DNA from: a virus
IMG/VR virus record: IMGVR_UViG_3300010883_000369
Span: 1 to 26,377 of that record
DNA: 26,377 bases
Reading direction: 5' to 3' (one strand)
Position numbers and translations under genes: made by a program. Each line of letters starts with the position of its first letter. The first letter of the stretch is position 1. A model generated the notes under the pieces. That model did no database searches, was not told the DNA's origin, and saw only the letters and a list, made by a program, of their open reading frames with translations. Below are positions 6,370 through 21,263 of the stretch, piece after piece.

Positions 6370-6887
6370 TAATTAACTCCGTCAGAGCCTAAATAAGATT
6401 TACCACTGATGTATGTACCTAACGTATTTTGTTTACTTATCTCTTTAGCTGTCTTTGATGGTGAAGTTAAACCGCCTAATCCCGTTCCAAATTCTACATT
6501 AAGTGCAGGATCCATTACTTCGCCAGTATATGCAGGTTTATCGTTGGCATTAATACTACCAGGCCCGGGCGATGTAGGATTTGGCATGTAAGGCGAAGGT
6601 ATATTAAGTGAAGCAATATCAACATCTTCTAAATTAGGTGCATCTGGAAAGTCTCTATTAAAACTATTTAGCCCATTGCCCGGCCCTGCTAGCGGTCCTC
6701 CGTTAACTGCAACATCGCCGTCTAGCGCAAGTTTTGTATATTCTTTTTTTCGTTGAATATCATTTAACTCACCTGTATAAACTGGTGATGTTGGAAAGCA
6801 TGAAGTTAGATTAACATCTTTTCTTGCACCCATAGGCTTATTTGGTGCCGGTGGAACTTCAACAATAATTTGTTTTTGTTCAGGCAT
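6369..6887 (-). CDS. Pro/Gly/Asn-rich head-region protein, unknown function
   Basis: 172 residues of low predicted order, rich in Pro, Gly, Asn and Ser. Y-T-G-E occurs twice (about residues 37-40 and 120-123), each after a proline-containing segment, which suggests an internal repeat or repeated short binding motif. The gene is translationally coupled on both sides: its start overlaps the upstream stop (TAATG at 6887) and its stop overlaps the downstream start (TAATG at 6369). Such coupling within the protease-scaffold interval suggests a product needed in proportion to other head proteins. No domain recognised. Confidence 0.75.
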   Translation of the reverse strand: MPEQKQIIVEVPPAPNKPMGARKDVNLTSCFPTSPVYTGELNDIQRKKEYTKLALDGDVAVNGGPLAGPGNGLNSFNRDFPDAPNLEDVDIASLNIPSPYMPNPTSPGPGSINANDKPAYTGEVMDPALNVEFGTGLGGLTSPSKTAKEISKQNTLGTYISGKSYLGSDGVN

Positions 6888-7135
6888 TACTTAATCCTCT
6901 TTAACAAAGCAACTTTAATTAATTTTTTAGCTTCATTAATTTTTTTAATGCTATTTTGATTTTTTCTTTGCTTGCTATCAAGTTGCTTTAATAAGTTAAG
7001 ATAAGTTTCAACAAGCTTTTTTCTTGTTACTTTTTTTGATGATGATTTTTTTCTAATAGCAGCAGTTTTCAACTTATACTTTTCTTCTGCAATAATTCTT
7101 TTTAGCGTTGCAGGCGTTAATTTTTTGACTTTCAT
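6887..7135 (-). CDS. Small lysine-rich basic protein with CTS-like N-terminus
   Basis: 82 residues with a very high lysine content and almost no acidic patches, so it may bind nucleic acid or the acidic scaffold. The N-terminus (K-L-T-P-A-T-L-K-R-I-I-A-E-E, residues 5-18) resembles the N-termini of two other proteins in this window (genes at 7249 and 20814). It also resembles the pattern of the T4 capsid-targeting sequence, a short N-terminal helix ending in an x-I/L-x-E site cut by gp21. A GGAGA site precedes the ATG at 7135, and the stop overlaps the next start. One reading is a T4 internal-protein analogue, packaged in the head with DNA. That is inference from charge, location and N-terminus. 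Confidence 0.7.
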   Translation of the reverse strand: MKVKKLTPATLKRIIAEEKYKLKTAAIRKKSSSKKVTRKKLVETYLNLLKQLDSKQRKNQNSIKKINEAKKLIKVALLKRIK

Positions 7136-7248: not shown

Positions 7249-7740
7249 CTAATCAGAAAACGCTAGCGCTGCCCACTTGCTACTAGCTTCAGCGCCAAAG
7301 ATATCTGCCGGTTCGCTTTTACTAACAAGCTTTTGTGCTGCATCTGCATTTGCTAGTGGCATGGTGCTTCTAGAATTTTCAGCTGCAGCTTGTTCTTGAA
7401 GTGTAGACATTGCTGTATCTTTAAGCATTTCTGTGAGAATTGGATCGTTTGTTATTGATGCTGTTAGCTGATCAATATTTTTTTCAAATCTTGGGTTACT
7501 AGATATCTTTTCTTCACCAAACTTAATATTGTCTAAATATGTTGGGCGTTTATTATTTCTTTTTAATAGCTTGCTCTGACCTTCAGCAACATTAATTACA
7601 GACTCTCTTAACTTATTTGATTTTTTAGCTGAGCGATTAGGTGTAGTGTTCTCAGTCATTAATCCCTCGGCAAGAATTTCAATTAAGCATTCTTTAACAA
7701 TAGACTTGATAACTGTTTTAGTAAGTTTATTTGACTTCAT
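7249..7740 (-). CDS. Head-region protein with CTS-like N-terminus, unknown function
   Basis: 163 residues from the ATG at 7740, which overlaps the protease stop codon as ATGA. An in-frame ATG at 7752 lies further inside the protease gene and has no better ribosome site, so I prefer 7740. The N-terminus (K-L-T-K-T-V-I-K-S-I-V-K-E, residues 5-17) matches the motif seen in the genes at 6887 and 20814. It runs into L23-A-E25|G26, a perfect gp21 consensus site, which suggests a head-targeted protein that is trimmed. The rest is helical and polar with an alanine-rich C-terminus. It follows the protease gene directly, in the head-assembly cluster. No known domain recognised. Confidence 0.75.
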   Translation of the reverse strand: MKSNKLTKTVIKSIVKECLIEILAEGLMTENTTPNRSAKKSNKLRESVINVAEGQSKLLKRNNKRPTYLDNIKFGEEKISSNPRFEKNIDQLTASITNDPILTEMLKDTAMSTLQEQAAAENSRSTMPLANADAAQKLVSKSEPADIFGAEASSKWAALAFSD

Positions 7741-8345
7741 TTTAATTCCCATCGTAGTATATCGTTAAAGATTCTATTGATCCTGTCTGACTTGTTAAAT
7801 GTTTTTCTTAGATCAGAATCTTTAATTTTCTTTCCTTCGCTCATCATAAAAGCACCCGGTGTTGACGGTTCACTAACCATATCAAAACATATTAATTGAA
7901 AATCATCTTGCACAACTTGTGTGTCGCCTTGCCTTTGCGTAGAGCCTACGCCTCTGGATGAAATACCTAGCGTCACTCCACTTTCAATCAACGATTGTAT
8001 AATTTTACCACTAGGTGTATTAAGTATCTCTATCACACCGTATACATTGTCTCCTTGCATTTTCGCTTCAGTAATTATATGAGAAACATTTTTAAGTTCA
8101 ACAACAGAAGATTCTGGGTGATCACATTCGCCCATAGCTCGGTTTTCTTGAATTAGCTTCTGATAATTAACAACTTCTCTTTCTAAAATTGTTCTTGGGT
8201 ATACCCGTCCATTCTGATTGAGTGTATTGGCTCTTTGGATTATTCCCCTTAAGAGAACTTTACCATATTTTTCTTTAGACTCTTTTATTAAGTTCTTGTC
8301 TATAGAAATAGGACACCATTCAGTTAATAATTTTTTTTCCGACAT
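7737..8345 (-). CDS. gp21: Prohead core protease, gp21-like
   Basis: Serine protease that matures the prohead by cutting scaffold and capsid N-termini after L/I-x-E. From the ATG at 8345 it has 202 residues, near the size of T4 gp21. Family features: an N-terminal N-x-N-G-R-V-Y-P segment (about 43-50), the catalytic His in G-E-C-D-H76-P, the nucleophile Ser in L-G-I-S-S130-R-G, and a downstream D-M-V-S-E-P-S-T-P-G-A block. These match the S77-type (T4 gp21) fold. A TTG at 8375 would add 10 residues. The ATG is preferred because AGGAGA lies 5 nt before it and because it begins just after the upstream stop. Position between the gp67/68-like gene and scaffold is as in T4. Confidence 0.93.
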   Translation of the reverse strand: MSEKKLLTEWCPISIDKNLIKESKEKYGKVLLRGIIQRANTLNQNGRVYPRTILEREVVNYQKLIQENRAMGECDHPESSVVELKNVSHIITEAKMQGDNVYGVIEILNTPSGKIIQSLIESGVTLGISSRGVGSTQRQGDTQVVQDDFQLICFDMVSEPSTPGAFMMSEGKKIKDSDLRKTFNKSDRINRIFNDILRWELK

Positions 8346-13231: not shown

Positions 13232-13484
13232 TATTTACTCCTATAATCAATTGCGTTCTTTTATAAATATACTCATCAAGGGCAGTTTTATCTGGTCGCC
13301 AACCTTCTTTCCATAAATCTTTTCTAGATTCCACAAAAGTTAAATAGCACTCACCACAACATTCGTACTCTTTATTTTTTAAAAAATCAACTCTGCCGAC
13401 TAAAACAAACTTACATAATTTGCAAAAAAAAGAATCCTTAGCTAGACCATTATCATTAAATAATACTTTATGGGCTGTGTACAT
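13221..13484 (-). CDS. Small zinc-finger-like protein
   Basis: 87 residues with C21-K-L-C24 and C42-C43-G-E-C46, two cysteine knuckles 17 residues apart that could bind one zinc ion. A helical C-terminal part follows (K-E-G-W-R-P-D-K...L-D-E-Y-I). The ATG at 13484 lies 17 bp inside the end of the Mre11-Rad50 gene and has AAAGGAG upstream. The 3' end overlaps the next gene by 11 bp. Likely roles are DNA, RNA or protein binding in recombination or packaging, judged only by its cysteines and neighbours. Confidence 0.8.
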   Translation of the reverse strand: MYTAHKVLFNDNGLAKDSFFCKLCKFVLVGRVDFLKNKEYECCGECYLTFVESRKDLWKEGWRPDKTALDEYIYKRTQLIIGVNNEF

Positions 13485-16400
13485 GTGAATCTACTCCTTT
13501 CTTTAGTATCTCTATAGAATTATCTACAATATCTTTAATTGCATCTATATGTGATATTATGATTATATTTCTAAACCATTTTTTAAAAGATACTAGTAGT
13601 TTACTGCAAGATTCTAAATTTGTTTCATCTAAAGAACCAAATCCTTCATCTATTATTAACATATTTGTCTTTGGCAAAGTAGAAACGTTAATTAACGCAA
13701 CTCTAATTGCAAGTGATGCCATCATTTTTTCCATACCGGAGGCTAATTCTATAATTCTTTTTGAGTCTCCATAGTCTATATATATATCCATAGAATTACT
13801 TTCTAAATCAGCTTCAAGTGCAACTGTAAAGCCTACAACGCCTTGAAGTATCTTTGTTATTTCAATGTTTATTTTAGGAAGTAATGTATGTATTATCTGT
13901 ACAGGTATTCCCTTCTTAGATGATGCTTGGATAAACATGTCATAAAGCTTAAGATCCTTTCTAAGTTTTTCATATTTTTCTTTATTTTGTTTGCATATAT
14001 CTCGTTTTGCGCGCCACGAAGCCAAAAGATTAAGCACTCTATTCCTGTTAATATCTTCAGCTTTGATTGCTATGCTTGTTTTTGATATGGAATCTTTTAT
14101 CATTACAATAGGGTTGTCTGAATCTTGTTCAGCAAAGCGTTGTTTTATTTTATGTGATTCTGTCATTAACAAATTAAGGCTATTGTTTTCTTGCGAAGTA
14201 ATCTGATCCAATCGTTCTATTAAAACTTTTTGATTTGTTATACCACTAATTAACTCTGACTTTTTTTGAATAATTTGTGCATATTTTTCTAATTTTTTGT
14301 CATAGTCTTCAGAAAGATTTTCTAATTCATTTGATATGTCATCTATTTTAACAGAAAGAAATGTTACTTTTCTTTGTTGTACATCTAATTTTTGTTTATT
14401 TTTGTGAGAATTTTTAATAAACTTGCAATTTAAAAACGTTTCACCACAAGGTACTTGATCTAAAATAGAAACAGACTTTTCAATTTGTTTTAGCTCGCTT
14501 CTCTCTAAATTTAAAGATCCTTGAAGCTCTAATAGACTGAGTTTTATCTTTGTTTTTGAATTCTTTTTCTTTTTTACATCTTCAAGATTAAATGCTTCTA
14601 TAAAGCTTTCTATTTTATTAATTTTAGACTCTTGATCAACTATTTTTTCGCTTAATAATAACTTTTTTGTATTGTTTTTTTGTATTTCGTCTTTTTTCAA
14701 ATCAATACTTTTAGTAATCTTATCTATTTCTGATTGTGCAACTAAATCTGCAGAATCAACTTTATGAAGTCGGGACTTAAGTTCATCTAAAGTATTTCTA
14801 AGATCTGATATCTTATCTTCTATACACAATTTTTCCTTTAGATGATCATCAATCTTCAGCATGCTTAATTCTAATTTTTGATCCCAATTCTCACCAGTCA
14901 AAGTACTAATTATTGACCGTGAAGAAGATGAATCTTTTTTTGCCATCTCATTTATCTTATCAAAAACTTCTAAGTCTAAAAAGTTTGAAAGAATGTTTTT
15001 TCTTGCAGCTGCTTTTTCTTTTATAAAATTGTTAATCTCACCTTGTGAGGCTAGACTAGTCAGCATAAATTCTTCTGATGTACCGATTGTTTGTCTTAGA
15101 ATTTTTTCAGTTTCTCTTCTTTGCTCTTCTGTCAAGTCATCAATTATAGTACCTGATCGATCAATTTTATAAAACTTTAAAGTTGTAGGTGCCCAAACAT
15201 CTTTCTTTGTTTGTTTTTTAATTGTATTTCTAACAATTCTATACTTTGTACCTGCTATTGATATGTCTATCTCAGTTTTGCAACTATTCCTTCTAGTGTT
15301 TATTATATGAATATTTTTTATTGCGCCTCGATCAGTTGTATTAAACAAACCGTAAGCTAAGCTTCCTATAATTGATGATTTTCCTCTTGCATTTTTTCCA
15401 AATATTCCTGTGATACCTTGTAATGAATCAAAATTTATAAAATTATCTTCGCCGTAAGCAAACATATTATCAAATTTCATTGAATTGATTGTCCATTTTA
15501 TATTTCTTCTTTCATTATCTAATCTGGCAATTTGATTAACATATTTTTCAGTCATCAATCTAAGCGCATCCCATTCAGCTTCTTTTAAATCATGATTTTT
15601 ATAGTATGATTTAAGTAATGTCAAATGAGTTTCACTGCTTCTTAAATCTAGGGCATTGTTATCTTCTTTGTCTATTATACTTTCTGCTTCAAACTTAGTC
15701 TCTATCTTAAAAACAACTTCTTTTGAGTTATGACTCTTCTTTAAAAGTTTTTGTATTCTTTTTGCATCTGATTGTGGTATGAAATTATCTGCTCTTATTC
15801 TAAATCTAGATCTACGTGGATGCTTTTTGCATGCTGCTATTGTTGCCTCTAAGGAACCTGCCCAATCAACTGTTATGAAAGGATATATATTTTCAACTTC
15901 ATGAAATTTTACATCAAAATCATTTCTACCCCTGATATCCCAAACCAAAAAGCCTTTTTCTCTTGTTTCACCATAGTTTTGTTGAATTGTACTACCACAG
16001 TATGCAACTGTTTTTTCTTTATTAAGGAATTGTCTTTTATGTATATCACCCAATAAGGCGTAGTCAAAACCTTTAAAAAAGTTAAGATTAATCTCACCAT
16101 CAAGTTGCCAATCAACATCGGTCAATGATCCTCGAACCGCGCCATGATACAATGCGATATTTACGTCTAGTGGGTCAGGATTAATGTTAACCCAGTTTTC
16201 TTCATCGAAACAAGAAAATACACACCACTTAAATCCTGGGTACCCTGTATCATATATGCCTGAATGTTTATAAAGAAATATATTTGGATCGTTAATTGCT
16301 TCAATTATAGGCGTAATTGCATCTTGACGATCTTTGTTTAAAATTAATCCGTCATGATTGCCTAGTATGACATGTGTTGGACAAATTGAAGCTAATCGTT

Positions 16401-16596
16401 TAAACCACCAGCAGAGGCTCTGTATGATCTCTGGTGAAATTCCCTGCGTTTTGCTATGTACAATATCACCACCTACATATATAATGTCAGGTTTAAGCTT
16501 TTCAACTTTTTTAAAAAAATCTTTAAATGCCAAAATATATTCATCATGTCTAGAAAGACCTCGCCAATGTACATCAGCAATATGTATAATTCTCAT
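13468..16596 (-). CDS. Fused Mre11-Rad50 (gp47-gp46/SbcD-SbcC) recombination nuclease
   Basis: 1042 residues in one frame. The N-terminal Mre11/SbcD phosphoesterase (about 1-360) has D8-V-H10, G-G-D44, G-N-H-D (79-82), H151 and G-D-I-H (183-186). The Rad50/SbcC ABC ATPase follows: Walker A G-K-N-A-R-G-K-S-S (400-408), Q-loop Gln518, two long coiled-coil arms (about 550-890), signature S-G-M-E-K (953-957), Walker B I-I-D983-E984, D-loop S-L-D-E and switch His1016. In T4 these are separate proteins (gp47 nuclease and gp46 ATPase) that process ends for recombination-dependent replication and host DNA breakdown. The coiled-coil apex has P-C717-G-E-T-F-L-N-C724, a CX6C in place of the usual zinc-hook CXXC. 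The ATG is 4 bp after the upstream stop, with GGAG before it. Confidence 0.93.
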   Translation of the reverse strand: MRIIHIADVHWRGLSRHDEYILAFKDFFKKVEKLKPDIIYVGGDIVHSKTQGISPEIIQSLCWWFKRLASICPTHVILGNHDGLILNKDRQDAITPIIEAINDPNIFLYKHSGIYDTGYPGFKWCVFSCFDEENWVNINPDPLDVNIALYHGAVRGSLTDVDWQLDGEINLNFFKGFDYALLGDIHKRQFLNKEKTVAYCGSTIQQNYGETREKGFLVWDIRGRNDFDVKFHEVENIYPFITVDWAGSLEATIAACKKHPRRSRFRIRADNFIPQSDAKRIQKLLKKSHNSKEVVFKIETKFEAESIIDKEDNNALDLRSSETHLTLLKSYYKNHDLKEAEWDALRLMTEKYVNQIARLDNERRNIKWTINSMKFDNMFAYGEDNFINFDSLQGITGIFGKNARGKSSIIGSLAYGLFNTTDRGAIKNIHIINTRRNSCKTEIDISIAGTKYRIVRNTIKKQTKKDVWAPTTLKFYKIDRSGTIIDDLTEEQRRETEKILRQTIGTSEEFMLTSLASQGEINNFIKEKAAARKNILSNFLDLEVFDKINEMAKKDSSSSRSIISTLTGENWDQKLELSMLKIDDHLKEKLCIEDKISDLRNTLDELKSRLHKVDSADLVAQSEIDKITKSIDLKKDEIQKNNTKKLLLSEKIVDQESKINKIESFIEAFNLEDVKKKKNSKTKIKLSLLELQGSLNLERSELKQIEKSVSILDQVPCGETFLNCKFIKNSHKNKQKLDVQQRKVTFLSVKIDDISNELENLSEDYDKKLEKYAQIIQKKSELISGITNQKVLIERLDQITSQENNSLNLLMTESHKIKQRFAEQDSDNPIVMIKDSISKTSIAIKAEDINRNRVLNLLASWRAKRDICKQNKEKYEKLRKDLKLYDMFIQASSKKGIPVQIIHTLLPKINIEITKILQGVVGFTVALEADLESNSMDIYIDYGDSKRIIELASGMEKMMASLAIRVALINVSTLPKTNMLIIDEGFGSLDETNLESCSKLLVSFKKWFRNIIIISHIDAIKDIVDNSIEILKKGVDSHVHSP

Positions 16597-16600
16597 TTAT

Positions 16601-17842
16601 TTACATCTCCATTTTTACAACCGAATCTTTTCTGTCATGAGTAAATTGTAGTTTATATCCTGGTAATAATACCCAGCATCTTTTAGATATACAACTTTTT
16701 GGCTTTTGCGCACAGCCATCAGTCATAATAATGTACCCGTCAAACTCTGCAGCGCGCTTTCTAAAGTGTGATTCTACACAATCAAAGCATGTACCACCAG
16801 TTAATGTACGCATCGGCAGTTTATATTTTTTTCCTTTTCGCCATGCATACTCAGAATTTTTATCAACTACAGTATCGAAGTGAAAGACATTAAAAGCTAC
16901 ATTTCTTGCTAGTTTGTTTAACGATGAAAAGAAAGCTGCAATTCCATCATCGCCTACCGAACCTGATTGATCTATGTATATCGCTAAATTTGAAGTTCTT
17001 TTTGTTTTTGTGCCAGGGTGAATATATGGATACTTTCTATTAATTCTGCGATATGTTTTTGACTTATTAGCTTTTTGCTTATTTCCACAAAAGTAATGAA
17101 GTGTCTTCTTCCAGTCGATTGTATCTTCAATAGAAGCAATAATTTGTGTTTTTATATCAAAAGATACAGATCCCCATGCGTTGTTTTGATTTGCTCGATC
17201 TGCAGATTTCTTTATTATTTCTTTTAACTTGCCTTTCATTAACTCTTTATCAGATTCTGACATGTCACCATCATCAATATCAAAATGTACATCAAACCCT
17301 GGATTGTCACCAAAGTATGACTCCATTGCTTCTTTGACATCAGGATTTTCTCTTAACTTTTCCATGTACCACTCTGATGTTTTATTGACTGGTAACGATT
17401 TAATTACGTCACTTATCATAACTGCTTTTTTAGTTGTTTCTTCATCCTGTAAATCTGCCATAGACGAAAATGGTTGCCCCGGTATCAACCCACCTTCAGG
17501 TAATTGGTTTGACGGAATTATGCTATTAATTGCTAAATCAGTAGCAATATTCCACAATATGTGCGGATCTTGTTTTCTAGAAGTTACATGATTAAAAATC
17601 AAGTGATAACATTCATGTTTCATAAGTCCAAAAAATTGATCTTTTGTTAGTGTTTCAATAAAATTAGGGTTCCAGTATAGACATATAGAGCCTTGTTGTA
17701 CTGAAACACCGGCTGTAGGCACAATTGTTTCAGTTCTTATTTTGTTCATAGAGCGAACTATTGAACTAAAAAAAGGTTCGTCAAAAAGAAAAGCTACTAA
17801 AAGTTTTTCAAATTTTTTCGATGTTATTTCACTACCAACCAT
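16601..17842 (-). CDS. Putative metallopeptidase with VWA-like domain (DUF2201 type)
   Basis: 413 residues. The N-terminal part has H76-E-C-Y-H80, followed by N-I-A-T-D102-L-A-I-N, the arrangement of the putative metallopeptidase domain of DUF2201 proteins. The C-terminal VWA-like domain has the metal-ion site D291-Q-S293-G-S295, a T-G-G-T351 and M-T-D375-G. The middle (about 185-220) is acidic then basic. Such proteins are usually encoded next to a MoxR-type AAA+ ATPase, as here. The ATPase is thought to remodel or load a client held by the VWA partner. Substrate and activity are unknown. The gene is preceded by a bipartite promoter (17866-17895) and an AAGGAG site, and it leads the operon into the Mre11-Rad50 fusion. 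Confidence 0.88.
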   Translation of the reverse strand: MVGSEITSKKFEKLLVAFLFDEPFFSSIVRSMNKIRTETIVPTAGVSVQQGSICLYWNPNFIETLTKDQFFGLMKHECYHLIFNHVTSRKQDPHILWNIATDLAINSIIPSNQLPEGGLIPGQPFSSMADLQDEETTKKAVMISDVIKSLPVNKTSEWYMEKLRENPDVKEAMESYFGDNPGFDVHFDIDDGDMSESDKELMKGKLKEIIKKSADRANQNNAWGSVSFDIKTQIIASIEDTIDWKKTLHYFCGNKQKANKSKTYRRINRKYPYIHPGTKTKRTSNLAIYIDQSGSVGDDGIAAFFSSLNKLARNVAFNVFHFDTVVDKNSEYAWRKGKKYKLPMRTLTGGTCFDCVESHFRKRAAEFDGYIIMTDGCAQKPKSCISKRCWVLLPGYKLQFTHDRKDSVVKMEM

Positions 17843-17865
17843 TATATACTCCTTAATTTAATATT

Positions 17866-17895
17866 ATTATAACATTTTAAAATGCAAGTTGCACG
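17866..17895 (-). promoter_or_regulatory. Bipartite promoter, copy 3 (upstream of the metallopeptidase/VWA gene)
   Basis: On the minus strand, CGTGCAACTT (17895-17886), 12 nt, then GTTATAAT (17873-17866) continuing AATA. The upstream block matches the other two copies at 7 of 10 positions, and the spacing and -10 block are identical. It lies 24 bp before the ATG of the gene at 17842. Confidence 0.65.
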
Positions 17896-17917
17896 AATTA
17901 ATTGCGTTTTAAAATAT

Positions 17918-18970
17918 TTAATATTTTGAAGAAGAATTAACGATCTCTGTTACTAGTTTACCTAGCTCCTTGTGAAATTTTCTAATATTATCTATCTTTT
18001 TTGTTTCCATCACCATGTTGAAAAAATTAATTATCATTTCTTCTGAACATTTTTTAGCAAATTCACATGCATTTTGAACTTGTGTTATTGTTGGCTCGTT
18101 ATTTTTAGTACTAAGTACAATTTGTTCCAAAAGATCATTCTTTTTATCATTTGACAATGCATCAATATCTTTGTTAAGCGTTGGATATTTATCAAGTACA
18201 TCTTCAGCAGAAAACTTTGTTTCATAGTTTCTAATAAACTCAGCAAATGCTACTGATGTGGTTGTGCCAATAAAACCTGTGCACATTGCATAAAATAAGT
18301 CAGGCAAGCTTTTTCCAGCGTAATCATCAGGATTCATATCCGCGTATATTAAAGAAGCACATAGTCTATGCCAAGAAGCAGGATTTGGATATACTTTTCC
18401 TGACTCTAGCTCACCAACATGTCTAAGGTGTGATGGATATTTTTTAATAAAATCACAAACTGAAGCTGCAATATCTGTTCTATCTGAAGCCCATGTTAAC
18501 CAGTCTTCTGTTGTTGGTTCAATAGCCATAGTCCAAAATCTTCTAAGTAGCGCAGGATCCATGTCAGTAACTTGATATTCGCTACCTTCATTAATAGCTG
18601 CATACACACGAGTTTTGGGGTGTAGCTTATGGCCGTTTAATTCTCTGTCTAATACAATTTGAAATGCACATTGTTGAACTTCAATTGTAGCCCTGTTTAA
18701 TTCATCAAAAAATAACACAACAGGCTCTTTACATGCCCTAATTAACCAATCAACGGGTGCAAATCTTGTTACACCGTCAACTAATTCTGGCAATCCAATG
18801 ATATCGCCTTCAGTCATTTGACTTAATCGCCTGTCTACGACTGGTAGGTTTATGGTATCACCAATTTTATGAAAAATATGAGATTTTCCAATGCCAGTAG
18901 GTCCTTTTGCTAATACTGATATATCTGCTGGTAGTGAAGATACTACTTTGATGAATGTTTGAATGTCCAT
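17918..18970 (-). CDS. MoxR-type AAA+ ATPase
   Basis: 350 residues. The AAA+ core has Walker A G23-P-T-G-I-G-K-S30, the MoxR-typical segment M-T-E-G-D-I-I-G-L-P-E (52-62), Walker B V-V-L-F-F-D89-E90-L-N-R, sensor-1 Asn127 and D-P-A-L-L-R-R-F (138-145), which carries the arginine finger. The C-terminal region is helical. MoxR ATPases act as chaperones that remodel or load cofactors into partners carrying a VWA domain, and the next gene is such a protein. The start has AAGGAG upstream and a promoter copy at 19007-19036. It could alternatively be called a CbbQ/NorQ-like ATPase. The exact subfamily is not resolved by eye. Confidence 0.92.
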   Translation of the reverse strand: MDIQTFIKVVSSLPADISVLAKGPTGIGKSHIFHKIGDTINLPVVDRRLSQMTEGDIIGLPELVDGVTRFAPVDWLIRACKEPVVLFFDELNRATIEVQQCAFQIVLDRELNGHKLHPKTRVYAAINEGSEYQVTDMDPALLRRFWTMAIEPTTEDWLTWASDRTDIAASVCDFIKKYPSHLRHVGELESGKVYPNPASWHRLCASLIYADMNPDDYAGKSLPDLFYAMCTGFIGTTTSVAFAEFIRNYETKFSAEDVLDKYPTLNKDIDALSNDKKNDLLEQIVLSTKNNEPTITQVQNACEFAKKCSEEMIINFFNMVMETKKIDNIRKFHKELGKLVTEIVNSSSKY

Positions 18971-19548: not shown

Positions 19549-20814
19549 CTACTTGATTATGTGGTCAAAGCAAATGTTAAGATTTCTAATGTAATTGTTG
19601 CTGATCAGCTTATTTGTTTTTGCAAAATTAAAATTTAAGTCGCTACAGAGAATTACGCGGCCAAGCCTTCCATTACCATCAGCAAACGGGTGGATATATT
19701 CAAACAAAGCATGCCTTAAAAAAGGATCATTTTCATTGCTGCAAAAATTATTTATTTCACGATATATTAAGTCTGGTGCTGTATACGTGATACCTGCTGG
19801 TGACTTGTGGTCAAAGTTTCTTATTTCGCCAGGTGCGGCATCAACTAGCACATTATCATTGATGCATTTATGCAAATTAATTATTTTAAACGGATTATCG
19901 AGAGGGGTTAAGCTATTTGCTTTTATCAGCATTTTTAAAGTGCTTAGCAGGTCTATATTGTCTGTGCAATATTTTACTGGATAACATTGCAATACTTTTT
20001 TTGCGCATTTTACACAATCATCATAGGGTATATCAATGTTTTCTATTTCATTTGTCTTTTTAAGAAAATATGCAAAATCGCTATATAGATTATTATTTGT
20101 TGACTTACTAATTAAATCTTTAACAAATTTTCGAACATCAGACTTTTTAATTTTAGTATTACATGCGTCTTCATAACTTTTTGATGAAATATATGAATCA
20201 GCTAGCATTTGACCAATCATCTTGCCCGCTGATATGTCAGACGGATAATGCATACCATTTTCAATTCTTGATTGCGCAATCATTTCTGCTAATGTTTCTG
20301 CATCCATTTTTACTTCTGGAAAAGCATTGCCGATCATAGCTGCAGTAAAATATGCTATAGCAGTATGACCAGAGGGATATGACGGTGTATTTGAATCTTT
20401 AATTGCGCAGTATAACTCACTTTCATTTTGTAGCAAGTGCTTAGGTCGAGGTCTAGCGTGAGCAAACTTTAGTTTTAGGACTATTGTATCAGTATCGTCT
20501 AATAATAAAGATAAATGTTTCCAATTTATATTGAGCCCCATTTCTTTACTAAAAACTTTAAAGCAGTCTTCTACTGAATTATTTGACATGTTTAAAAAAG
20601 TGTTATTCATGCTTGGGTTTGCATAATAAAATATAACTTGTTCAACATCACTGTTATGCTCTTTTGAACCAATTTTTGGATAACTCAATTTAGGCAAGTT
20701 ATCTATGCTATTAATATATCTGCAGTCTCTTTCAATTCTTTTTTGATACTTTTTTGGAATTGTATCATTATAGTTTTGTCGCGTTTCGGAAAATAACGGC
20801 AGCAAACTTTTCAT
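19549..20814 (-). CDS. PAP2-type phosphatase fused to a Fic domain
   Basis: 421 residues with two catalytic domains. Residues about 60-210 form a PAP2/class A acid phosphatase core with all three motifs: K114-x6-R121-P, P147-S-G-H150 and S182-R-x5-H189-x3-D193. Residues about 225-415 form a Fic domain with a flap-like segment (about 335-347) and the full active-site motif H375-P-F-A-D-G-N-G-R-x-x-R386. Fic enzymes usually transfer AMP, or another phosphate-containing group, to a protein hydroxyl. PAP2 enzymes hydrolyse phosphate esters. There is no signal peptide or membrane segment, so a soluble cytoplasmic enzyme is expected, unlike most PAP2 proteins. No clear Fic inhibitory motif (S/T-x3-E-G/N) is seen. 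The start overlaps the previous stop (TAATG), coupling it to the zinc-ribbon gene. Target unknown. Confidence 0.9.
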   Translation of the reverse strand: MKSLLPLFSETRQNYNDTIPKKYQKRIERDCRYINSIDNLPKLSYPKIGSKEHNSDVEQVIFYYANPSMNNTFLNMSNNSVEDCFKVFSKEMGLNINWKHLSLLLDDTDTIVLKLKFAHARPRPKHLLQNESELYCAIKDSNTPSYPSGHTAIAYFTAAMIGNAFPEVKMDAETLAEMIAQSRIENGMHYPSDISAGKMIGQMLADSYISSKSYEDACNTKIKKSDVRKFVKDLISKSTNNNLYSDFAYFLKKTNEIENIDIPYDDCVKCAKKVLQCYPVKYCTDNIDLLSTLKMLIKANSLTPLDNPFKIINLHKCINDNVLVDAAPGEIRNFDHKSPAGITYTAPDLIYREINNFCSNENDPFLRHALFEYIHPFADGNGRLGRVILCSDLNFNFAKTNKLISNNYIRNLNICFDHIIK

Positions 20815-21263
20815 TAAATTTCGCCTTCGTGCTCATCGTAATCTAGTGCATGATAAACTTCAGAGATATCATCTGCAAGTTGCGCTATTTTTGTTCTTTG
20901 CCAATCATCTAGCTCATAACCGTCAGGTATCATATTAAGTAGCTTTTGTGCGTATTTTGAAACTTTATATAGCGAAGCCTTGGCCATATAATTATTGTTT
21001 GAATTATTTAATTTAGAATTACATTTTTCACATGTGCCACAGCCGCATCCTGATCCTTCAAATATTTTGCTTTGTGCTACATAACCGCACTCCATGCATT
21101 CATCTTCATTCATTGTAGATCCACATTGTTCGCATTTTAATGCAGCGCTTAAAGGCGGTGTGTCTTGTGATGATGCAACAGCGCGAGGTACTATTACGTC
21201 TTCACCCATTGATTGGAATTCTTTTATAATTAAATTCCTAATTTTTGCTCTAGATAACTTCAT
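20814..21263 (-). CDS. Zinc-ribbon protein with CTS-like N-terminus
   Basis: 149 residues in three parts. The N-terminal helix (K-L-S-R-A-K-I-R-N-L-I-I-K-E, residues 2-15) matches two head-region proteins of this window. A zinc ribbon carries C44-x2-C47 and C56-x2-C59, plus a second cysteine cluster (C73, C75, C78, C81). The C-terminal helical part (about 93-147, S-L-Y-K-V-S-K-Y-A-Q-K-L) resembles a module I recall at the end of various marine phage proteins. An AAGGAGC site precedes the ATG. The gene lies between primase and PAP2-Fic and overlaps the latter. It may be a virion-packaged protein despite its replication-type neighbours. Function unknown. Confidence 0.8.
   Translation of the reverse strand: MKLSRAKIRNLIIKEFQSMGEDVIVPRAVASSQDTPPLSAALKCEQCGSTMNEDECMECGYVAQSKIFEGSGCGCGTCEKCNSKLNNSNNNYMAKASLYKVSKYAQKLLNMIPDGYELDDWQRTKIAQLADDISEVYHALDYDEHEGEI

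What the first reader, a model, noticed from the sequence alone, without database searches (positions are those of the whole stretch)
19549..20814. PAP2 phosphatase-Fic fusion in a phage replication-gene cluster
One uninterrupted frame carries complete catalytic motifs of two opposing chemistries: a phosphate-ester hydrolase (K-x6-R-P, P-S-G-H, S-R-x5-H-x3-D) and a Fic transferase (H-P-F-A-D-G-N-G-R-x-x-R). I know of no described phage enzyme with this pairing. It has no membrane segment, unlike most PAP2 proteins. A self-contained writer/eraser, a nucleotide-pool enzyme, or a host-takeover or anti-defence effector that modifies a host protein are all possible. Translational coupling to a possibly virion-targeted zinc-ribbon protein adds the option of early action after infection. 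The motifs are seen; the function is inference.
Basis: partly seen in the sequence, partly recalled or inferred. Interest (0 to 1): 0.88.

Follow-up and report, generated by a model that had tools for sequence, protein, structure and literature searches.

The report
Phage PAP2 phosphatase–Fic fusion, possibly head-borne
A group of uncultured T4-like phages carries one protein that joins a soluble phosphatase to a self-inhibited protein-modifying (Fic) enzyme; the pairing is real and conserved in at least 21 phage contigs, and its N-terminal tag looks like the signal that T4 uses to load proteins into its head for injection into the host.

Summary
The fusion is real. On the MINUS strand, 20814→19549, one 421-aa frame holds a PAP2 domain (Pfam 1e-15) and a Fic domain (3e-8). 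A model built from 16 homologues is confident (pLDDT 88, pTM 0.86) and matches class A acid phosphatases and FICD/SoFic-type Fic folds. It is not an assembly artefact: 20 other viral contigs carry the same fusion in the same gene order, with both catalytic residue sets conserved and dN/dS near 0.1. No named phage has it. (1) TNEIEN, between the domains, aligns with the inhibitory S-x-x-x-E-G motif of C. difficile Fic, so the Fic part is probably autoinhibited (class II-like). (2) The first 10 residues (M-x-S-[L/I]-x-x-L-F-x-[E/D]) are disordered but strongly conserved, and fit the T4 capsid-targeting sequence in register. Four further contigs keep leader and PAP2 site but have lost the Fic catalytic residues, which speaks against a simple writer/eraser. 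Best guess: a head-packaged, injected two-enzyme effector whose constant part is PAP2. Substrates are unknown. A sliding-clamp-like peptide remains a rival for the leader. New architecture of known families.

The parts
19549..20814 (-). PAP2-Fic fusion gene, 421 aa, start codon at 20814
   Evidence: homologues in 20 other contigs
20782..20814 (-). N-terminal leader, residues 1-11 (MKSLLPLFSET); candidate capsid-targeting sequence
   Evidence: pLDDT <50 for residues 1-6 and 8-16; L7 and F8 18/18, L/I at 4 18/18, E/D at 10 16/18; T4 comparison
20185..20694 (-). PAP2 domain region, residues 41-210
   Evidence: Pfam 111-205; class A acid phosphatase fold
20443..20469 (-). PAP2 motif 1, K116..R123-P124
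20365..20376 (-). PAP2 motif 2, PSGH 147-150
   Evidence: invariant
20236..20271 (-). PAP2 motif 3, SRx5Hx3D 182-193
   Evidence: R183, H189, D193 invariant
20038..20055 (-). Fic inhibitory motif TNEIEN, residues 254-259
   Evidence: E258 invariant in the 16 fusions; aligns with C. difficile Fic S31..E35
19657..19692 (-). Fic catalytic motif HPFADGNGRLGR, residues 375-386
20814..21263 (-). upstream zinc-ribbon-like protein, stop overlaps the fusion start; partner of unknown role

Best explanation
The gene makes a two-enzyme effector. Shown: an N-terminal leader, a soluble class A acid-phosphatase-like PAP2 domain, an inhibitory motif and a canonical Fic domain, all conserved together. Inferred: during head assembly the leader binds the scaffold core as T4 capsid-targeting sequences do (residues 4 and 7 for targeting, 8 and 10 for protease processing), so the protein is packaged and enters the host with the DNA. 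In the host the PAP2 domain removes phosphate from a soluble phosphorylated compound (constant activity of the lineage), and the Fic domain, once its inhibitory glutamate (E258) moves away, transfers AMP to a host protein. Autoinhibition would keep the Fic part harmless during phage production. Rough sub-confidences: fusion real 0.98; PAP2 active 0.85; Fic an autoinhibited AMP-transferase 0.75; head-packaged and injected 0.5; exact targets unknown.
For: Pfam and structure identify both domains. PAP2 and Fic catalytic residues invariant in 16 fusions; dN/dS about 0.1 in both domains where saturation allows an estimate. E258 aligns with E35 of C. difficile Fic in SNKIEG; the cousins have S-N-x-I-E throughout. 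Leader: disordered in the model yet L7 and F8 invariant in 18 sequences like the active-site residues; fits T4 IPIII MKTYQEFIAE and gp24 MAKINELLRE in register; in IPIII residues 4/7 direct targeting and 8/10 processing (PMC9026906). Scaffold gp22 of these phages begins M(S)SKLFEEA, sharing LFxE. The core phi-x-x-phi-phi-x-E also stands at the N-terminus of two head-cluster proteins of the window (6887-7135, 7249-7752) and is about 4-fold enriched at N-termini in G001 and 3.4-fold in G002. Related Fic domains occur behind leaders MRITRKNLRKII and MRITKNDLRKII (L041, L042) and in a 1026-aa protein encoded between protease and scaffold genes (L038, L040).
Against: No virion proteomics. The fusion's leader differs from the commoner MKITKxxLR type, and apart from the fusions themselves no protein of G001-G004 showed the S-[L/I]-x-x-L-F form at a convincing start. 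Position 10 is not always E (L, A, N or D in some), so cleavage is not assured. The window's VWA gene also holds the core by chance or otherwise. Leader enrichment is weaker in G003 (2.5x) and G004 (1.7x). The leader also resembles the T4 polymerase C-terminal peptide SLDFLF. AMP transfer and phosphatase activity are untested, and active-site geometry could not be measured from the model.
Confidence: 0.48

Rival explanations
1. The protein is made in the infected cell and works there (host takeover, anti-defence or nucleotide-pool control) without being packaged; the N-terminal S-[L/I]-x-x-L-F peptide docks it to the sliding clamp or another replisome part.
For: Neighbours include primase, RuvC and gp46/47-like genes. 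T4 gp43 ends in SLDFLFG, which fits S-[L/I]-x-x-L-F.
Against: Three of six phage contigs searched have a DnaE-type polymerase and none a T4-type one; no clear clamp peptide was seen in three DnaE sequences and no clamp was recognised (the gp45 search had no positive control). A clamp peptide does not explain the acidic residue at position 10.
Confidence: 0.3
2. Self-contained writer/eraser: Fic modifies a target and PAP2 removes the mark.
For: Both active sites sit in one chain and are conserved together in 21 contigs including the window.
Against: In L243, L245, L247 and L251 the Fic motif is APFxxGN[K/R]KxxN while the PAP2 site and leader are intact. PAP2 occurs alone in dozens of phage contigs. 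A PAP2 phosphatase would not be expected to split a protein-AMP phosphodiester (established knowledge).
Confidence: 0.08
3. PAP2 removes pyrophosphate or a nucleotide product and so drives or regulates the Fic reaction.
For: Class A acid phosphatases have broad substrate ranges (established knowledge); a Fic cousin is fused to another phosphohydrolase, Nudix (L039).
Against: PAP2 persists where Fic catalysis is lost and occurs alone in other phages.
Confidence: 0.12
4. Chimeric assembly or spurious frame.
For: None found; the window is one 26-kb metagenomic record.
Against: 20 other contigs with the same fusion and synteny, strong purifying selection.
Confidence: 0.01

Closest known systems
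Class A non-specific acid phosphatases (PhoN, PhoC, P. aeruginosa acid phosphatase 7f17/7f18)
   Same: Soluble PAP2 fold and all three catalytic motifs
   Different: No signal peptide seen; fused to Fic; carried by phages; only about 20-25% identical
Class II Fic AMP-transferases (SoFic, FICD/HYPE) and C. difficile Fic 0569
   Same: HPFxDGNGRxxR core and upstream (S/T)xxxE inhibitory motif
   Different: The domain upstream is PAP2; the sixth position of the inhibitory motif (G/N) is variable in the fusions
T4 internal head proteins with capsid-targeting sequences (IPI-III, Alt)
   Same: Short N-terminal leader; IPIII and gp24 share hydrophobic residues at 4, 7, 8 and E at 10 (PMC9026906); Alt is an injected host-modifying enzyme (PMC9026906, PMC5694885)
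   Different: Different enzymes; presence in virions not shown; Alt is cleaved at ITE-6, not position 10 (PMC5694885)
Phage Fic proteins such as TP901-1 ORF56 and PHROG 5978/11900
   Same: Fic core
   Different: No PAP2 match; similarity only around the Fic region

Membership tests
PAP2 superfamily (PF01569) | K-x6-RP, PSGH, SRx5Hx3D motifs and fold | tested here: met
Class A non-specific acid phosphatase | Secreted protein with signal peptide | tested here: not met
   N-terminus MKSLLPLFSETRQN has no hydrophobic signal core and is disordered; judged by eye and hydropathy, no signal-peptide program run
Class A non-specific acid phosphatase | Broad phosphomonoesterase activity | not testable with these tools
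   needs an assay
Fic family (PF02661) | HPFx(D/E)GN(G/K)R motif and fold | tested here: met
Class II Fic | (S/T)xxxE(G/N) inhibitory motif N-terminal to the core | tested here: met
   TNEIEN 254-259; E258 invariant in 16 fusions; aligned with C. difficile Fic S31/E35. Position 6 is not G/N in all homologues
Class II Fic | AMP transfer relieved by the E to G change | not testable with these tools
   needs an assay
T4-type capsid-targeted internal protein | N-terminal targeting sequence with essential residues 4, 7, 8, 10 | tested here: inconclusive
   residues fit in register, but the pattern is short and a clamp-peptide reading is possible
T4-type capsid-targeted internal protein | Present in the virion and ejected | not testable with these tools
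   no isolate, no proteomics
SoFic defence gene (PADLOC) | Full-length match to the SoFic model | tested here: not met
   match covers only 62-208 of 361 model positions, E 5.5e-14

The most novel reading that the evidence does not exclude
Marine T4-head phages deliver a modular family of injected effectors: a phage-wide N-terminal leader (core phi-x-x-phi-phi-x-E) loads unrelated enzymes into the head, and one such module is an autoinhibited Fic AMP-transferase that has been combined with exchangeable partners (PAP2, Nudix, poly(A)-polymerase/CCA-type nucleotidyltransferase, leucine-rich-variant repeats).
Probability: 0.4. Interest if true: 0.85.

Novelty: new variant of a known kind. Interest (0 to 1): 0.63.

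Why it matters
T4's Alt is the textbook case of an injected phage enzyme that modifies host proteins; few others are known (own knowledge). A conserved PAP2-Fic protein with a capsid-targeting-like leader would point to protein AMPylation as a time-zero takeover step in uncultured phages, and its leader gives a sequence handle for finding further head-borne effectors. The lineage that lost Fic catalysis but kept PAP2 offers a natural dissection of what each half does.

Tried and rejected
Single-sequence scans of viral contigs and genome contigs found nothing; searching with a neighbour (MoxR) opened the family. Literature searches for PAP2+Fic, Fic+virion+AMPylation and the MKITK leader gave nothing relevant. 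Clamp-peptide test: no PolB, no gp45 hit but also no control that rang, no beta clamp, DnaE present but without an obvious clamp motif: inconclusive. Functional tie to MoxR/VWA rejected: L030, L032 and L034 have the fusion without that pair. Toxin-antitoxin pairing with the zinc-ribbon protein was considered; nothing supports it. Pfam on five large leader-bearing proteins of G002 gave no families.

Full report
WHAT IS THERE. The window is a whole virus record of 26,377 bases from a phage with T4-type head genes: gp23 by Pfam, terminase about 41% identical to Microcystis and Flavobacterium phages, and by position and homology portal, protease, scaffold and fused gp46/47-like genes. The gene of interest lies on the minus strand, 20814 to 19549, 421 aa. 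Pfam finds PAP2 (1e-15, residues 111-205) and Fic (3.3e-8, residues 311-389), both above the curated cut-offs. The catalytic signatures did not occur in 200,000 shuffles and there is no membrane segment.

CONSERVATION. The single protein found no relatives in collection scans, but loci found through the neighbouring MoxR gene did: 16 contigs hold a homologue over all or nearly all of its length, about 35-48% identical, at the same position. Further scans add L030, L032, L034 and L246, making 20 contigs besides the window. The order primase - zinc-ribbon-like gene - fusion - small gene - (MoxR - VWA) - gp46/47 is largely kept. PAP2 and Fic catalytic residues are invariant in the sequences of the first alignment. 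Synonymous sites are near saturation in most pairs; where they are not, dN/dS is about 0.1 in both domains (L008/L012: 0.12/0.95 for PAP2 and 0.06/1.5 for Fic). Three MoxR loci (L014, L015, L019) belong to other phages and lack the gene at that place. No named phage record has the fusion.

STRUCTURE. An AlphaFold2 model from these sequences has mean pLDDT 88.2 and pTM 0.86, with residues 1-6 and 8-16 below 50. Against the PDB its N-terminal half matches class A acid phosphatases and its C-terminal half FICD, SoFic and C. difficile Fic. Profile searches agree.

INHIBITORY MOTIF. Between the domains lies TNEIEN (254-259). E258 is invariant and residue 254 is S or T in the alignment. In Fic cousins of other phages the stretch reads SNxIE, and the cousin profile aligns it with SNKIEG of wild-type C. 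difficile Fic (4x2e); the matching stretch reads ANKIAG in 4x2c/4x2d, described as the S31A/E35A mutant. The Fic half therefore carries the class II-type inhibitory motif. The sixth position (G/N) is variable among the fusions.

LEADER. Residues 1-11 are predicted disordered, yet in 18 aligned sequences L7 and F8 are invariant, residue 4 is always L or I and residue 10 is E or D in 16 (L017 and L016 fit once their GTG starts are used). Mean column entropy is 1.41 bits for residues 3-11 against 2.16 for 12-36. In T4 the capsid-targeting sequence of IPIII needs mainly residues 4 and 7 for targeting and 8 and 10 for processing (PMC9026906); the T4 N-termini read from the record are MKTYQEFIAEA (IPIII), MAKINELLREST (gp24), MELITELFDED (Alt) and MLKEQLIAEAQ (gp22). 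The fusion leader MKSLLPLFSET fits IPIII and gp24 in register. The scaffold protein of these phages starts M(S)SKLFEEA. The core phi-x-x-phi-phi-x-E occurs at 16.8% and 17.8% of N-termini in two large contigs against 4.2% and 5.2% of internal stretches, but only 10.5% against 4.2% and 6.5% against 3.9% in two others. No cellular control was run for that enrichment, and start-codon choice is uncertain. The same S-L-x-x-L-F pattern is present in the T4 polymerase tail SLDFLFG, so a clamp-binding peptide remains a rival; the tests made for it were inconclusive.

COUSINS. Fic domains 28-35% identical to this one, with the same inhibitory motif, occur in other phages: alone behind leaders MRITRKNLRKII and MRITKNDLRKII (L041, L042), with Nudix (L039), with a poly(A)-polymerase-type nucleotidyltransferase (L043), and in a 1026-aa protein with leucine-rich-variant repeats encoded between the protease and scaffold genes (L038, L040). 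PAP2 relatives occur alone (about 200-220 aa) in dozens of phage contigs and inside proteins of up to 2567 aa; some begin with a leader core, e.g. MSIKKIIREELESM (L253). The ones tested have no PHROG match, and one searched against named phages gave only weak, partial hits. In a tree of the PAP2 part, 42 of 43 stand-alone rows form one side of a branch with support 100/99, with the fusions and the Fic-decayed set on the other side; one very long row has an unsure place.

A NATURAL DISSECTION. In L243, L245, L247 and L251 the gene sits in the same place with leader and PAP2 motifs intact, but HPFxDGNGRxxR has become APFxxGN[K/R]KxxN and the inhibitory glutamate is gone. The four form one clade. 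A model still has a Fic-like fold (pLDDT 87; FICD hits) and the region stays under purifying selection (L245/L247 dN/dS about 0.1). So PAP2 and leader are the constant parts, Fic catalysis is dispensable in one lineage, and PAP2 cannot be kept there merely to erase a mark made by the same protein.

INTERPRETATION. The best-supported account is a two-enzyme effector, probably packaged in the head and injected, with a constant phosphatase and an autoinhibited AMP-transferase. Packaging, AMP transfer and substrates are inference. Targets of some bacterial Fic enzymes are known (GyrB and ParE, PMC7479194), but nothing here identifies the target. The architecture appears undescribed in the collections and the open literature searched; each domain belongs to a known family, so it is a new variant rather than a new kind.

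Noticed in passing
G001/G002 contigs (e.g. L187, L189, L194, L195, L197), L039-L043, L014: Dozens of unrelated proteins begin with MK[IL][TS][KR]xxLRxxIxE; a candidate phage-wide capsid-targeting leader that a text search of open papers did not find described.
   Followed up: partly
L036, L038-L043: Class II-type Fic domains in other phages combined with Nudix, poly(A)-polymerase/CCA-type and leucine-rich-variant domains, or alone behind a leader.
   Followed up: partly
L243, L245, L247, L251: Lineage with a catalytically decayed but still selected Fic domain beside an intact PAP2 domain.
   Followed up: yes
L253-L308: Large family of stand-alone phage PAP2 proteins; the representatives tested have no PHROG match, and one searched against named phages gave only weak partial hits. 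Some PAP2 domains lie inside proteins of 2007 and 2567 aa (L260, L279).
   Followed up: partly
L314-L316 (G006, G002, G001): T4-type head genes occur together with a DnaE-type (Pol III alpha) polymerase; no family B polymerase was found.
   Followed up: no
window 13468-16596: gp47-like and gp46-like parts are fused in one 1042-aa frame, also in the relatives.
   Followed up: no
window 16601-18970: MoxR-type ATPase plus VWA/metallopeptidase-like pair (Pfam DUF2201_N); PHROG 1314 calls the latter an HNH endonuclease, which looks like a wrong label.
   Followed up: no
L016 4714-7476, L017 5404-7488: Proteins of 920 and 694 aa with leader-like N-termini and no Pfam family, inserted just downstream of the fusion.
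   Followed up: no
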